Shown here piece by piece: positions 15,945-24,572 of a DNA stretch of 36,604 nt (its first letter is position 1; every line of letters starts with the position of its first letter). Under the pieces are notes generated by a model that saw only the letters and a program-made list of their open reading frames with translations, did no database searches and was not told where the DNA came from. Both the position numbers and the translations under genes were made by a program. The stretch is from Clostridia bacterium (GTDB lineage Bacteria; Bacillota; Clostridia; Oscillospirales; Butyricicoccaceae). The stretch is from NCBI GenBank assembly GCA_017559995.1, contig JAFYPP010000084.1, positions 1 through 36,604 on the forward strand, read 5' to 3'.

Positions 15945-16631
15945 TTACTGGATCTTGGCCAGGATCATCTTGGCGCAGTCGATCTGGTTGGGACTGTTGC
16001 CATTCTCGTCCTTGACACGCCAGATATCGGGAGTGATCTCGTCGGCGACGTAGATCTTGCCGCTCTCGTCGTAACCGACCTCGATCTTGAAGTCGATCAG
16101 CTGTAGGTTCATGCCGGCCAGTTCCTTCTTCAGGACTTCGCCGACCTTCACCAGGATCTCCAGAGCCTGGTCAAACTGGCCTTCCTTCAGCATGCCCTTC
16201 ATGATGCACAGACGCTCGGTGATCAGGGGATCGCCCTGGGCGTCGCTCTTCAGGGTGACTTCGCAGTAGGGGGGCTCAAAGGGGATGCCCTGCTCCAGGT
16301 CAAAACGACGGCACATAGAGCCGGCGGTGAAGTAGCGCAGAACGAACTCCAGCTTGGGAACGGTCAGATTGCGGACCTTCATCAGGCCCTGGTCCAGATC
16401 GGAGCCCAGGTAATGGGTGGGGATGCCGTTCTTTTCCATCAGCTCGAAGAAGTACTTGGAAACGGCCAGGCCAACCTTGCCCTTGCCTTCCACGCTGCCG
16501 CCGACGGAGTTGGAGCCGGGATCGAAGACGCCGTTTTCACCGGTAGCGCTGTCCTTGAAGAACAGATGCACCACGTTGGTGGCTTCGTCCAGCATAACGT
16601 TCTTGGTCTTGCCCTCGTAAAGTGTTTTCAT
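15945..16631 (-). CDS. purC: Phosphoribosylaminoimidazole-succinocarboxamide synthase (SAICAR synthetase)
   Basis: The 228-residue protein catalyses the ATP-dependent ligation of aspartate to CAIR in purine synthesis, in the cytosol. Family marks are YEGKTKNV at residues 5-12, GSNSVGGSVEGKG near 40, and the signature pair LIDFKIEVG and DEITPDIWR near the C-terminus. The length is near the ~235 residues usual for PurC. ATG at 16631 with AAAGGGGA eight nt upstream. It is a single-gene unit with its own promoter and shared terminator; no other pur gene adjoins it, unlike the usual purine operon. I see no guanine/xanthine or ZTP riboswitch in its leader. Confidence 0.95.
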   Translation of the reverse strand: MKTLYEGKTKNVMLDEATNVVHLFFKDSATGENGVFDPGSNSVGGSVEGKGKVGLAVSKYFFELMEKNGIPTHYLGSDLDQGLMKVRNLTVPKLEFVLRYFTAGSMCRRFDLEQGIPFEPPYCEVTLKSDAQGDPLITERLCIMKGMLKEGQFDQALEILVKVGEVLKKELAGMNLQLIDFKIEVGYDESGKIYVADEITPDIWRVKDENGNSPNQIDCAKMILAKIQ

Positions 16632-21453: not shown

Positions 21454-21480
21454 AAAAGCGCCCCGAACGGGGCGCTTTTT
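21454..21480 (+). terminator. Terminator of xfp
   Basis: A stem AAAAGCGCCCC / GGGGCGCTTTT with a 3-nt loop and T run. Confidence 0.94.
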
Positions 21481-21535: not shown

Positions 21536-22309
21536 ATGCTGTTTGTTGCCAACATCGGAAATACTGTCATCAACATCGGTGTGTTTCAAAAGGACACGCT
21601 GGTGTGCACCGCGCGTTTGTCTTCGGCCAGCGGCCGCAGCAGCGATGAGTACGCCGTCACGCTGAACGCCATTCTGGCCATGAACGGCGTGGATGCCAGG
21701 GAGATCGGCGGCGCGGTGATCGCCTCGGTGGTCAAGCCCATGAGTCCGGTGATCGGCGGCGCGGTGGAAAAACTGTTCGGCATCAAACCGCTGTTTATGG
21801 GCCCCGGCGTGCGCACCGGTCTGGATATCAAGATCGAGCGGCCCGCCGAGCTGGGCGCCGATATCGCCGCCGCCTGTGTGGGCGCGCTGGCGCTGATGAA
21901 GCCGCCCTTCGTGGTGGTGGGCTTCGGTGACGCCACCACCCTGACCCTCATTGACCGCAATTCCCGCCTGTGCGGCGTGATGATCTGTCCCGGTGCCTTT
22001 GCGGGCATCCACGGTCTGTCCCGGCTGGCTGCCGAGCTGCCGGTGATCTCGCTGGAGCCGCCCAAGGCGCTGCTGGGCAAAAACACCGTGGACTCCATGA
22101 ACAACGGCGCGGTGTACGGCACCGCCGCTATGGTGGAGGGCTTGGTGGACCGTCTGCGGGAGAGCATCGGCGAAGAACGCCTGCCGGTGATCGCCAGCGG
22201 CACCTATTGCGACATTATCCTGCCCTACTGCCGCATGGAAGCCCGCAAGGAGCCCCAGCTGGTGCTGCAGGGCCTGAAAAAGGTCTGTGAGCTGAACAGC
22301 AAACGATAA
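21536..22309 (+). CDS. coaX: CoaX-like (type III pantothenate kinase family) protein with altered active-site residues
   Basis: The 257-residue ASKHA-fold protein matches CoaX along its length: IGNT at 7-10, GPGVRTGLDIKI at 89-100, GAD at 107-109, and GKNTVDSMNNGAVYG at 181-195. CoaX catalyses the first step of CoA synthesis, ATP-dependent phosphorylation of pantothenate. However, the usual first-motif Asp (DVGNT) is Asn6 here, and the usual DFGTATT motif reads GFGDATT (129-135), so the Asp is Gly129 and the Thr is Asp132. Only the GAD Asp109 remains. It may be a weak enzyme, a paralogue with a new role, or a pseudoenzyme. ATG at 21536 follows AGGGGAGG. Monocistronic, convergent with proC. 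Confidence 0.8.
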   Translation: MLFVANIGNTVINIGVFQKDTLVCTARLSSASGRSSDEYAVTLNAILAMNGVDAREIGGAVIASVVKPMSPVIGGAVEKLFGIKPLFMGPGVRTGLDIKIERPAELGADIAAACVGALALMKPPFVVVGFGDATTLTLIDRNSRLCGVMICPGAFAGIHGLSRLAAELPVISLEPPKALLGKNTVDSMNNGAVYGTAAMVEGLVDRLRESIGEERLPVIASGTYCDIILPYCRMEARKEPQLVLQGLKKVCELNSKR

Positions 22310-22315
22310 GAAAAT

Positions 22316-22339
22316 GCCCCGACGGGTCACCGTCGGGGC
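22316..22339. terminator. Terminator between the coaX-like gene and proC
   Basis: A 10-bp perfect stem GCCCCGACGG / CCGTCGGGGC with a GTCA loop lies between two convergent genes. The T-tract is moderate on the plus strand; on the minus strand the hairpin is followed by ATTTTC. Confidence 0.85.
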
Positions 22340-22344
22340 GTTGT

Positions 22345-23139
22345 TTATTTCTTTCCCAAATTGCCGCTGGCGCCGGCCGCCGTGATCACGGCCTCCATCA
22401 CCGCGCCGCGGAAGGCGTGGTTTTCCAGCACACGGACACCCTGGATGGTGCTGCCGCCGGGAGAGCACACCTTGTCCTTGAGGGCGCCGGGGTGTTCGCC
22501 GGTCTCCAGCGCCAGCCGTGCCGCGCCGGCAACCGCCGCGGCGGCGTATTTCAGCGCCTTGGCACGGGGGATGCCGCAGGCCACCGCGCCGTCGGCCATG
22601 GCCTCCATATACAGGTCGGTAAAGGCGGGGCTGCAGCCGCACAGGGCCGAGCCGGCATCCATCAGATGCTCGGGCAGGGGATCCACGATGCCGGCAGGGG
22701 AGAGGGCCTCCACCAGCGCCTGTTCCTCCTCACCGGTCAGAAGCTCGTTTTTGCAGTACATGATGACACCGCAGCCCAGAGCCACCGGCGTGTTGGGCAT
22801 GATGCGCATGACGGGAAGGCCGCCGCCGGCCATTTCCTCGATCTGTGCCGCCGTGAGGCCTGCGGCCATGCTCACCAGCACGGGGCGATTTTCCTGCAGC
22901 TGGGGCCGCAGACCCTCCAGCAGAGTGCCCATGTCCTGGGGTTTGACGCCCAAAAACAGATAACGGCAGGAAGCCGCGGCGGTTTTGGCGTCGGTGACGG
23001 CGCACTCCAGCCGGCAGGCCAGGGCCTCTACCTTTTCGGGCGTGCGGCCGCAAAGGGTCATCCGCTGACCGCCCACACGCTTGTGTACGGCGGTGGCCAC
23101 CGCCGAGCCCATATTTCCTACACCGATAAATCCAAACAT
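22345..23139 (-). CDS. proC: Pyrroline-5-carboxylate reductase
   Basis: The 264-residue cytosolic NAD(P)H enzyme catalyses the last step of proline synthesis. It has the N-terminal Rossmann motif GFIGVGNMGSA (3-13), the conserved MRIMPNTPVALGCG near residue 110, and the C-terminal family signature PGGSTIQGVRVLE near 235. The length is as usual. ATG at 23139 follows GGAGGGA; a nearby ATG at 23146 is in another frame. It is divergently transcribed from a LysE-type amino-acid exporter, with the two promoters only a few bases apart. Confidence 0.96.
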   Translation of the reverse strand: MFGFIGVGNMGSAVATAVHKRVGGQRMTLCGRTPEKVEALACRLECAVTDAKTAAASCRYLFLGVKPQDMGTLLEGLRPQLQENRPVLVSMAAGLTAAQIEEMAGGGLPVMRIMPNTPVALGCGVIMYCKNELLTGEEEQALVEALSPAGIVDPLPEHLMDAGSALCGCSPAFTDLYMEAMADGAVACGIPRAKALKYAAAAVAGAARLALETGEHPGALKDKVCSPGGSTIQGVRVLENHAFRGAVMEAVITAAGASGNLGKK

Positions 23140-24416: not shown

Positions 24417-24493
24417 GGCCGAGTAGTTCAGTTGGTTAGAACGCTAGCCTGTCACGCTAGAGGTCGAGGGTTCGAGCCCCTTCTCGGTCGCCA
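24417..24493 (+). tRNA. tRNA-Asp (anticodon GTC)
   Basis: Acceptor strand GGCCGAG pairs with CTCGGTC (one G-U). The anticodon loop is CTGTCAC with GTC, the T-arm has GGTTCGAGCC, the discriminator is G, and the 3' CCA is encoded. 77 nt. Confidence 0.97.
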
Positions 24494-24496
24494 TTC

Positions 24497-24572
24497 GCTG
24501 CTATAGCTCAGATGGTAGAGCGCGTCATTGGTAATGACGAGGTCAGCAGTTCAAATCTGCTTAGCAGCTCCA
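24497..24572 (+). tRNA. tRNA-Thr (anticodon GGT)
   Basis: Acceptor GCTGCTA pairs with TAGCAGC. The anticodon stem CGTCA/TGACG has loop TTGGTAA giving anticodon GGT, and the T-loop is TTCAAAT. Encoded CCA. Three nt after tRNA-Asp, so one transcript. Confidence 0.97.

What the first reader, a model, noticed from the sequence alone, without database searches (positions are those of the whole stretch)
21536..22309. CoaX-like protein with substituted catalytic aspartates
Asn6 stands where family members have Asp (DxGNT), and Gly129/Asp132 stand in the DFGTAT motif; only the GAD Asp109 remains. The remaining sequence is strongly conserved, so the fold is probably intact. It may be a regulatory paralogue or an enzyme with changed chemistry.
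Basis: partly seen in the sequence, partly recalled or inferred. Interest (0 to 1): 0.55.

Follow-up and report, generated by a model that had tools for sequence, protein, structure and literature searches.

The report
Retired pantothenate kinase, probably a sensor
A gut bacterium keeps a vitamin B5 kinase homologue that has lost key catalytic residues while the rest of the protein stays under selection, and it carries a gene for a different such kinase, so the old protein has probably become a vitamin-sensing regulator, as its relative in the tuberculosis bacterium has.

Summary
Confirmed: the CoaX at 21536-22309 has Asn6, Gly129 and Asp132 for Asp, Asp and Thr, and keeps Asp109. Not a sequencing error: relatives have Gln6/Gly129 or Asp6/Gly129. 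It is the only CoaX found in its genome, but a predicted type II pantothenate kinase (CoaW) lies on another contig. It belongs to a large clostridial CoaX clade whose genes often adjoin a PanT-like transporter gene. Catalytic Asp were lost repeatedly there (at least 9-10 state changes; one origin rejected), mostly where another kinase gene was found (42 of 45 degenerate copies in the family, 9 of 11 outside), though a tree-paired test was not significant. Against its nearest relative dN/dS is 0.04-0.08. Losses are strongest at the two catalytic Asp; GPGxxTG, GxD and IxPG glycines and Asp109 stay. Best reading: a pseudokinase kept as a pantothenate-responsive regulator, parallel to M. tuberculosis CoaX (PMC12288473). 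Binding and activity are untested, and panT is missing here. By-product: a covarying hairpin with two bulged A's, like the published pan motif, precedes panT elsewhere.

The parts
21536..22309 (+). coaX, degenerate type III pantothenate kinase homologue (257 aa), of the clostridial CoaX clade that often adjoins panT
21551..21553 (+). codon 6, Asn in place of the first catalytic Asp (DxGNT)
21860..21862 (+). codon 109, Asp of GAD, retained (kept in 52 of 56 degenerate copies)
21920..21922 (+). codon 129, Gly in place of catalytic Asp
21929..21931 (+). codon 132, Asp in place of Thr in the GTAT loop
19019..21445 (+). phosphoketolase, upstream neighbour; also just upstream of coaX in 6 of 6 genus relatives compared
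21454..21479 (+). terminator-like hairpin between phosphoketolase and coaX (pattern match only)
22313..22342 (+). terminator-like hairpin after coaX, found on both strands (pattern match only); in three genus relatives panT follows coaX, here it does not
22345..23139 (-). proC, convergent downstream neighbour; found beyond coaX in 5 of 6 genus relatives compared

Best explanation
A pseudokinase. A CoaX of the clostridial clade that often shares a locus with the importer gene panT was freed from catalysis once its lineage had another pantothenate kinase (here CoaW). It lost the two Asp and loop residues that (as recalled from CoaX structures) hold ATP phosphates and metal, but kept the fold, Asp109 and the motifs of the pantothenate side. 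It is most likely kept because it binds pantothenate and passes that signal to a partner that adjusts vitamin supply or CoA synthesis. Shown: the substitutions, a second kinase gene, recurrence, purifying selection against the nearest relative, predicted fold, kept motifs, frequent panT neighbourhood in relatives. Inferred: no kinase activity, pantothenate binding, regulatory output. Unknown: the partner in this species, where no panT of this type was found.
For: Only PF03309 match in its genome; CoaW elsewhere (best PDB hit type II PanK 4nb4, E 8.8e-17, residues 52-269); no type I hit. States at 6/109/129: 37 of 37 intact-type copies read are DDD (of 49 listed); 45 of 62 copies of the other type are not DDD. 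Another kinase gene (second CoaX or CoaW) was found in 42 of these 45 genomes and for 9 of 11 degenerate loci outside the family; of 21 intact loci tested 14 had none found (type I not searched there). G000 against G075: 65 synonymous and 15 amino-acid codon differences, dN/dS 0.083 (NG86) or 0.039 (YN00); none of the 15 in codons 70-210 against 35 synonymous (block chosen after looking). In 56 degenerate copies the intact consensus residue is kept at D6 14%, D129 39%, G8 71%, G131 73%, T132 75%, but D109 93%, G91 and G95 98%, G107, G153, T184, G222 100%. AF2 94.4, top fold CoaX. ECF S component next to CoaX in 46 of 61 family loci and 38 of 75 named loci; two members searched had as best solved relatives 6zg3 and 4rfs, PanT by recall. 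Genus g4 keeps Asn6 copies (10 of 10) without adjacent panT but mostly with panC (10 of 12 genomes), as a pantothenate sensor not bound to PanT could. Precedent: M. tuberculosis CoaX is described as no kinase but a pantothenate-responsive regulator (PMC12288473, two passages).
Against: No binding or activity data. No panT of this type was found in G000, G075, G077 or G079, nor beside the g4 copies, yet CoaX is kept, so panT cannot be its only target. 27 of 56 degenerate copies are changed at only one of the three positions and may keep some activity. Seventeen of 62 family copies are still DDD, nearly all with another kinase gene present. The tree-paired test of loss against a second kinase had 5 pairs on starred branches and was not significant. 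L117 and L146 are degenerate with no other kinase found; completeness not given. dN/dS in more distant genus pairs is higher (NG86 0.19-0.61; YN00 failed for most pairs). Conserved residues outside the phosphate loops are also lost in part: G181 58%, P176 45%, L3 45%, T30 64%, V185 71%, T35 77%, P67 80%.
Confidence: 0.55

Rival explanations
1. Weak or altered enzyme: still an ATP-dependent kinase with other metal ligands or another substrate, Asp109 as base.
For: Asp109 kept in 52 of 56 degenerate copies; 27 of 56 changed at only one of the three positions.
Against: In the window both other Asp are gone and the phosphate loop carries a new acid, Asp132. Residues at 6 (N, I, A, Q, S, H, E) and 129 (G, C, S, I, T, L, A, E, Q, N) vary and do not converge on one new set. 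Position 6 is N in G000 and Q in its 94% identical relative.
Confidence: 0.15
2. Subunit that pairs with the active kinase, as in the apicomplexan PanK1/PanK2 complex.
For: Heteromeric PanK complexes exist (PMC8366970, passages including the abstract); adjacent intact and degenerate CoaX genes in L135, L143, L177 and coexistence with an intact-type CoaX in most genomes of genera g2-g6.
Against: Here the only other kinase gene found is CoaW, of a different type; a mixed type II/III dimer is not known to me (recall).
Confidence: 0.15
3. Relic on its way out, without function.
For: Some genera with CoaW have no CoaX found: g13-g15 none in 9 genomes, g9 none in 6 of 7. Higher NG86 dN/dS in distant genus pairs.
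Against: dN/dS 0.04-0.08 between G000 and G075 and 0.05 (YN00) or 0.21 (NG86) between G000 and G077; open frame; found in 8 of 9 genomes of the genus, next to phosphoketolase in 6 of 6 relatives compared.
Confidence: 0.1
4. Assembly or contamination artefact.
For: MAG of 114 contigs with 5.4% contamination.
Against: Same neighbours and the same kind of substitutions in separately assembled relatives.
Confidence: 0.02

Closest known systems
Type III pantothenate kinase CoaX (B. anthracis 2h3g, T. maritima 3bex; PF03309)
   Same: Full-length homology, predicted fold TM 0.90/0.93 to 2h3g, GAD Asp and substrate-side motifs
   Different: Two of three catalytic Asp and the GTAT Thr replaced; another pantothenate kinase gene in the genome
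Mycobacterium tuberculosis CoaX (9b78, 9cku)
   Same: CoaX homologue reported inactive as kinase, in an organism with another PanK, gene beside panC and panD (PMC7770189 passages); tied to pantothenate supply
   Different: Keeps the Asp of VDFG and acts on the depupylase Dop and PanB; Pup system is actinobacterial (recall). The clostridial losses are at other residues and in a clade often linked to a transporter gene
Apicomplexan PanK1/PanK2 and human PANK4
   Same: Pantothenate kinase homologues with incomplete catalytic sets that are kept
   Different: Type II family, eukaryotic, heteromeric complex or other role (PANK4: recall)
pan motif RNA (for the hairpin before panT in relatives)
   Same: Stem with two conserved bulged A's, some in tandem, before pantothenate genes (PMC2864571, one passage)
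   Different: These stand before panT and are mostly single; no pan match among Rfam hits at E up to 10 in 9 loci (I did not check that the pan family is in that library)

Membership tests
Type III pantothenate kinase (CoaX) | Full-length Pan_kinase profile and fold | tested here: met
   (TIGR00671 subfamily 163.5 bits, cut-off 58.2)
Type III pantothenate kinase (CoaX) | Three catalytic Asp (6, 109, 129 here; roles recalled) | tested here: not met
   N6, D109, G129
Type III pantothenate kinase (CoaX) | NCBIfam equivalog cut-offs | tested here: not met
   Best PRK13321.1 205.9 bits against 233; all 24 equivalog models shown are below cut-off (intact relatives were not run as a control)
Type III pantothenate kinase (CoaX) | ATP-dependent phosphorylation of pantothenate | not testable with these tools
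   needs assay
Pantothenate-sensing pseudokinase (M. tuberculosis CoaX type) | CoaX fold with another PanK gene in the genome | tested here: met
Pantothenate-sensing pseudokinase (M. tuberculosis CoaX type) | Binds pantothenate and a regulated partner; trimer of dimers | not testable with these tools
   for the Mtb protein only
PanT (pantothenate ECF S component), the neighbour in relatives | PF12822 match and closest solved chains PanT | tested here: inconclusive
   PF12822 in 7 of 7 S components run; best solved chains 6zg3 and 4rfs for 2 of 2 run, PanT by recall; no NCBIfam S-component cut-off reached; substrate not tested
pan motif RNA (hairpin before panT) | Match to a curated Rfam model | tested here: not met
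   9 loci, E up to 10, none
pan motif RNA (hairpin before panT) | Stem interrupted by two conserved bulged A's upstream of pantothenate genes | tested here: met
   on 32 leaders that I chose

The most novel reading that the evidence does not exclude
In Clostridia, dimeric CoaX is itself the pantothenate-responsive protein that binds the pan-type hairpin beside the ribosome-binding site of panT and sets transporter translation; catalysis was dispensable for that role, which explains why kinase-dead CoaX persists next to the hairpin and panT, and in the window genome it acts on a target elsewhere.
Probability: 0.12. Interest if true: 0.8.

Novelty: new variant of a known kind. Interest (0 to 1): 0.5.

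Why it matters
Such a protein is likely to be named 'type III pantothenate kinase' and counted as the enzyme in metabolic models. The data show recurrent loss of catalytic residues in one bacterial order with the protein retained, so vitamin B5 models of these gut bacteria should look for CoaW or another CoaX. It offers many naturally changed CoaX proteins, with intact sisters, for testing what the non-catalytic role of CoaX is, which in the papers I could search is described in mycobacteria only.

Tried and rejected
Degeneration by GADR loss: rejected, Leu/Met/Ile there is common in intact relatives. One origin of the substitutions: rejected (27 degenerate of 55 rows that I chose, group named after seeing the tree, simpler model, p-AU 4e-8). 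Simple dependence on panT: weakened. One search, with the G078 protein as query, found none in G000, G075, G077, G079; the query finds the G073 and G074 genes at only E 1e-20, so distant ones could be missed. The five S components listed for G000 were fetched; the best scored 33 bits with my panT-linked profile, against 206-214 for the linked genes of the genus. For G075 four of eight listed were fetched; for G077 and G079 none. Pantothenate synthesis as the context here: panC not found in the nine genus genomes. Link of loss with a second kinase: not significant when related rows are paired; in that call L158 was coded as lacking another kinase, which is wrong (an intact copy, L254, was read). 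Rfam identity of the hairpin: no match at gathering or E up to 10. The hairpin model finds nothing convincing in the window (best E 0.32). Structural papers on CoaX were not held, so the roles of Asp6, 109 and 129 are recalled.

Full report
The ORF at 21536-22309 translates to 257 aa, a full-length match to Pan_kinase, but below the cut-off of all 24 NCBIfam equivalog models shown for type III pantothenate kinase (no control with intact relatives). Against B. anthracis CoaX the changes are D6N, D129G and T132D; Asp109 stays. That these three Asp are catalytic in CoaX is recalled; the structure papers were not held.

The genome. The window is the whole of contig C78 of a 2.0-Mb, 114-contig assembly, 97.35% complete, 5.37% contamination. 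The nearest named relatives are uncultured Clostridia, mostly from ruminant gut, the first a sheep-rectum MAG with 94% identity. The genome has one CoaX, one type II pantothenate kinase and no type I hit. The type II protein aligns over residues 52-269 with S. aureus PanK and keeps an EF motif (that its Glu is catalytic is recalled). No panC was found in the nine genus genomes, so the vitamin is presumably imported.

The family. Of 87 genomes 64 have CoaX; most genomes of genera g2-g6 have two copies. One copy is high-scoring: 37 of the 49 listed were read and all are DDD at the three positions (sorted by a motif). The other scores like ours. CoaW occurs in 28 of 87 genomes, in genera g1, g7, g9, g10, g11, g13, g14 and g15, and in none of g2-g6, g8 and g12; the single g12 genome has neither. 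So genera with the intact-type CoaX lack CoaW, and the window's genus carries CoaW in 7 of 9 genomes and no intact-type CoaX.

Which lineage. On a quick tree of 126 of 179 aligned rows, without the three catalytic columns (SH-aLRT only), the 8 intact-type family rows included form one clade (100), apart from a clade of 110 rows (100) that holds the 39 family rows of the other type and 71 CoaX of other Clostridia. The 39 are not one clade: the window's genus groups with L112-L115, g7 with L158, g9 and g10 with L116, L133, L125 and L153, while 27 rows of g2-g6 and g8 group together; g11 is a long branch. CoaX of this clade sits beside an ECF S component in 38 of 75 named loci (L180 among them is family genome G033, and several loci are cut short) and 46 of 61 family loci (the 15 without are all 10 of g4, four of g1 and G026, whose contig ends). 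Seven S components run hit PF12822; two run against solved chains hit 6zg3 and 4rfs best, PanT by recall. I take linkage to panT as old in this clade. In the genus, phosphoketolase lies upstream of coaX in 6 of 6 relatives compared, MATE in 5 and proC in 5; panT follows coaX in G073, G074 and G078, not in G000, G075, G077 and G079. As L112-L115 also have it, panT was probably lost in the latter.

Recurrent loss. States at 6/109/129 in 62 family copies of this type: 17 DDD and 45 changed, in 13 patterns (one row, G076, is partial); in 77 other rows 66 DDD and 11 changed. The fewest changes between intact and degenerate are 10, 9 when only rows with known second kinase are counted and 8 on 55 chosen rows; these counts do not give direction. 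One origin is rejected. Another kinase gene was found in 42 of 45 degenerate family genomes (not in G033, G077, G079, which are 78-88% complete) and for 9 of 11 degenerate loci outside (4 CoaW; 5 another CoaX that is DDD). Not for L117 and L146. Seven of these 11 have the S component at the locus; L117, L146, L158 and L159 do not. Of 21 intact loci tested, 14 showed neither CoaW nor a second CoaX. Pairing on the tree left five pairs on starred branches and no significance, so the link is a pattern, not a proof.

Selection. G000 and G075 differ at 65 synonymous and 15 amino-acid codons, dN/dS 0.083 or 0.039; more distant genus pairs give NG86 values of 0.19-0.61, and YN00 failed for 12 of 15 pairs. 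None of the 15 lies in codons 70-210, where 35 synonymous changes lie (Fisher p 7e-5, block chosen after looking; against G077 the block shows no such bias). Codon 6 is AAC in one and CAG in the other. The gene is not decaying in this pair, while position 6 changes freely.

What is kept. Of the columns at least 93% conserved in 66 intact copies, the 56 degenerate copies keep D6 in 14%, D129 39%, G8 71%, G131 73%, T132 75%, while G91, G95, G107, D109, G153, T184, G195 and G222 stay at 93-100%. Some columns elsewhere fall too: P176 and L3 45%, G181 58%, T30 64%, V185 71%, T35 77%, P67 80%. The losses are strongest in the two phosphate loops; the kept motifs are, as I recall from CoaX structures, on the pantothenate side and core. 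AF2 gives mean pLDDT 94.4 and Foldseek puts CoaX 2h3g first.

Mechanism. A CoaX without two catalytic Asp, under selection, in a clade tied to a pantothenate importer, is best read as a pantothenate-binding regulator. M. tuberculosis CoaX is described so: not a kinase, it binds Dop, and pantothenate switches its effect on PanB depupylation (review PMC12288473, two passages; inactivity also PMC7770189, passages). Genus g4 keeps Asn6 copies with no adjacent panT, and 10 of 12 of its genomes have panC, which fits a sensor that is not bound to PanT. I did not test binding. Searches of the open-licence library for a published account of degenerate clostridial CoaX showed none in their listings.

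The RNA. Between coaX and panT in relatives lies a hairpin next to the ribosome-binding site. In 32 leaders that I chose from 80 distinct ones, and with a structure that I wrote from them, 98.3% of cells pair, 8 of 11 pairs change on both sides, and two bulged A's are invariant. Not every leader shows it. A model built from the 32 gave 81 hits at E up to 1e-3 in 80 of the 160 sources searched (the 32 match by construction; L109-L111 repeat L078, L075, L074). All 81 lie at a panT 5' end: 42 within 84 bases of the start of the panT profile match and 39 overlapping it, since the profile includes translated leader. This fits the published description of the pan motif (PMC2864571, one passage), though Rfam gave no match. 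None is in the window.

Noticed in passing
L041:3832-3873, L072:5630-5669, L132:1989-2030 and about 75 other places; not in the window: Covarying hairpin with two invariant bulged A's next to the ribosome-binding site of panT in many Clostridia; resembles the pan motif but has no Rfam match. A second copy in tandem in L173 and, weakly, L183; a weak one before coaX in L118 (3877-3906, E 0.034).
   Followed up: partly
L135, L143, L177: Adjacent CoaX genes after panT, one intact and one degenerate (Gly109, or Asn6/Asn129).
   Followed up: partly
L146:3796-4557: CoaX with all three Asp replaced (E, N, Q) and no other pantothenate kinase found in a 1.4-Mb assembly of unknown completeness.
   Followed up: partly
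window 15945-16631: Short PurC-like protein (228 aa) below the purC cut-off (139.1 against 189.9 bits).
   Followed up: no
window 24417-24569: Two adjacent tRNA genes.
   Followed up: no
genera g2-g6 loci, upstream of coaX: A small protein precedes this CoaX in 42 of 61 loci; the one member run is of the putative ABC-transporter type IV family PF06541.
   Followed up: no
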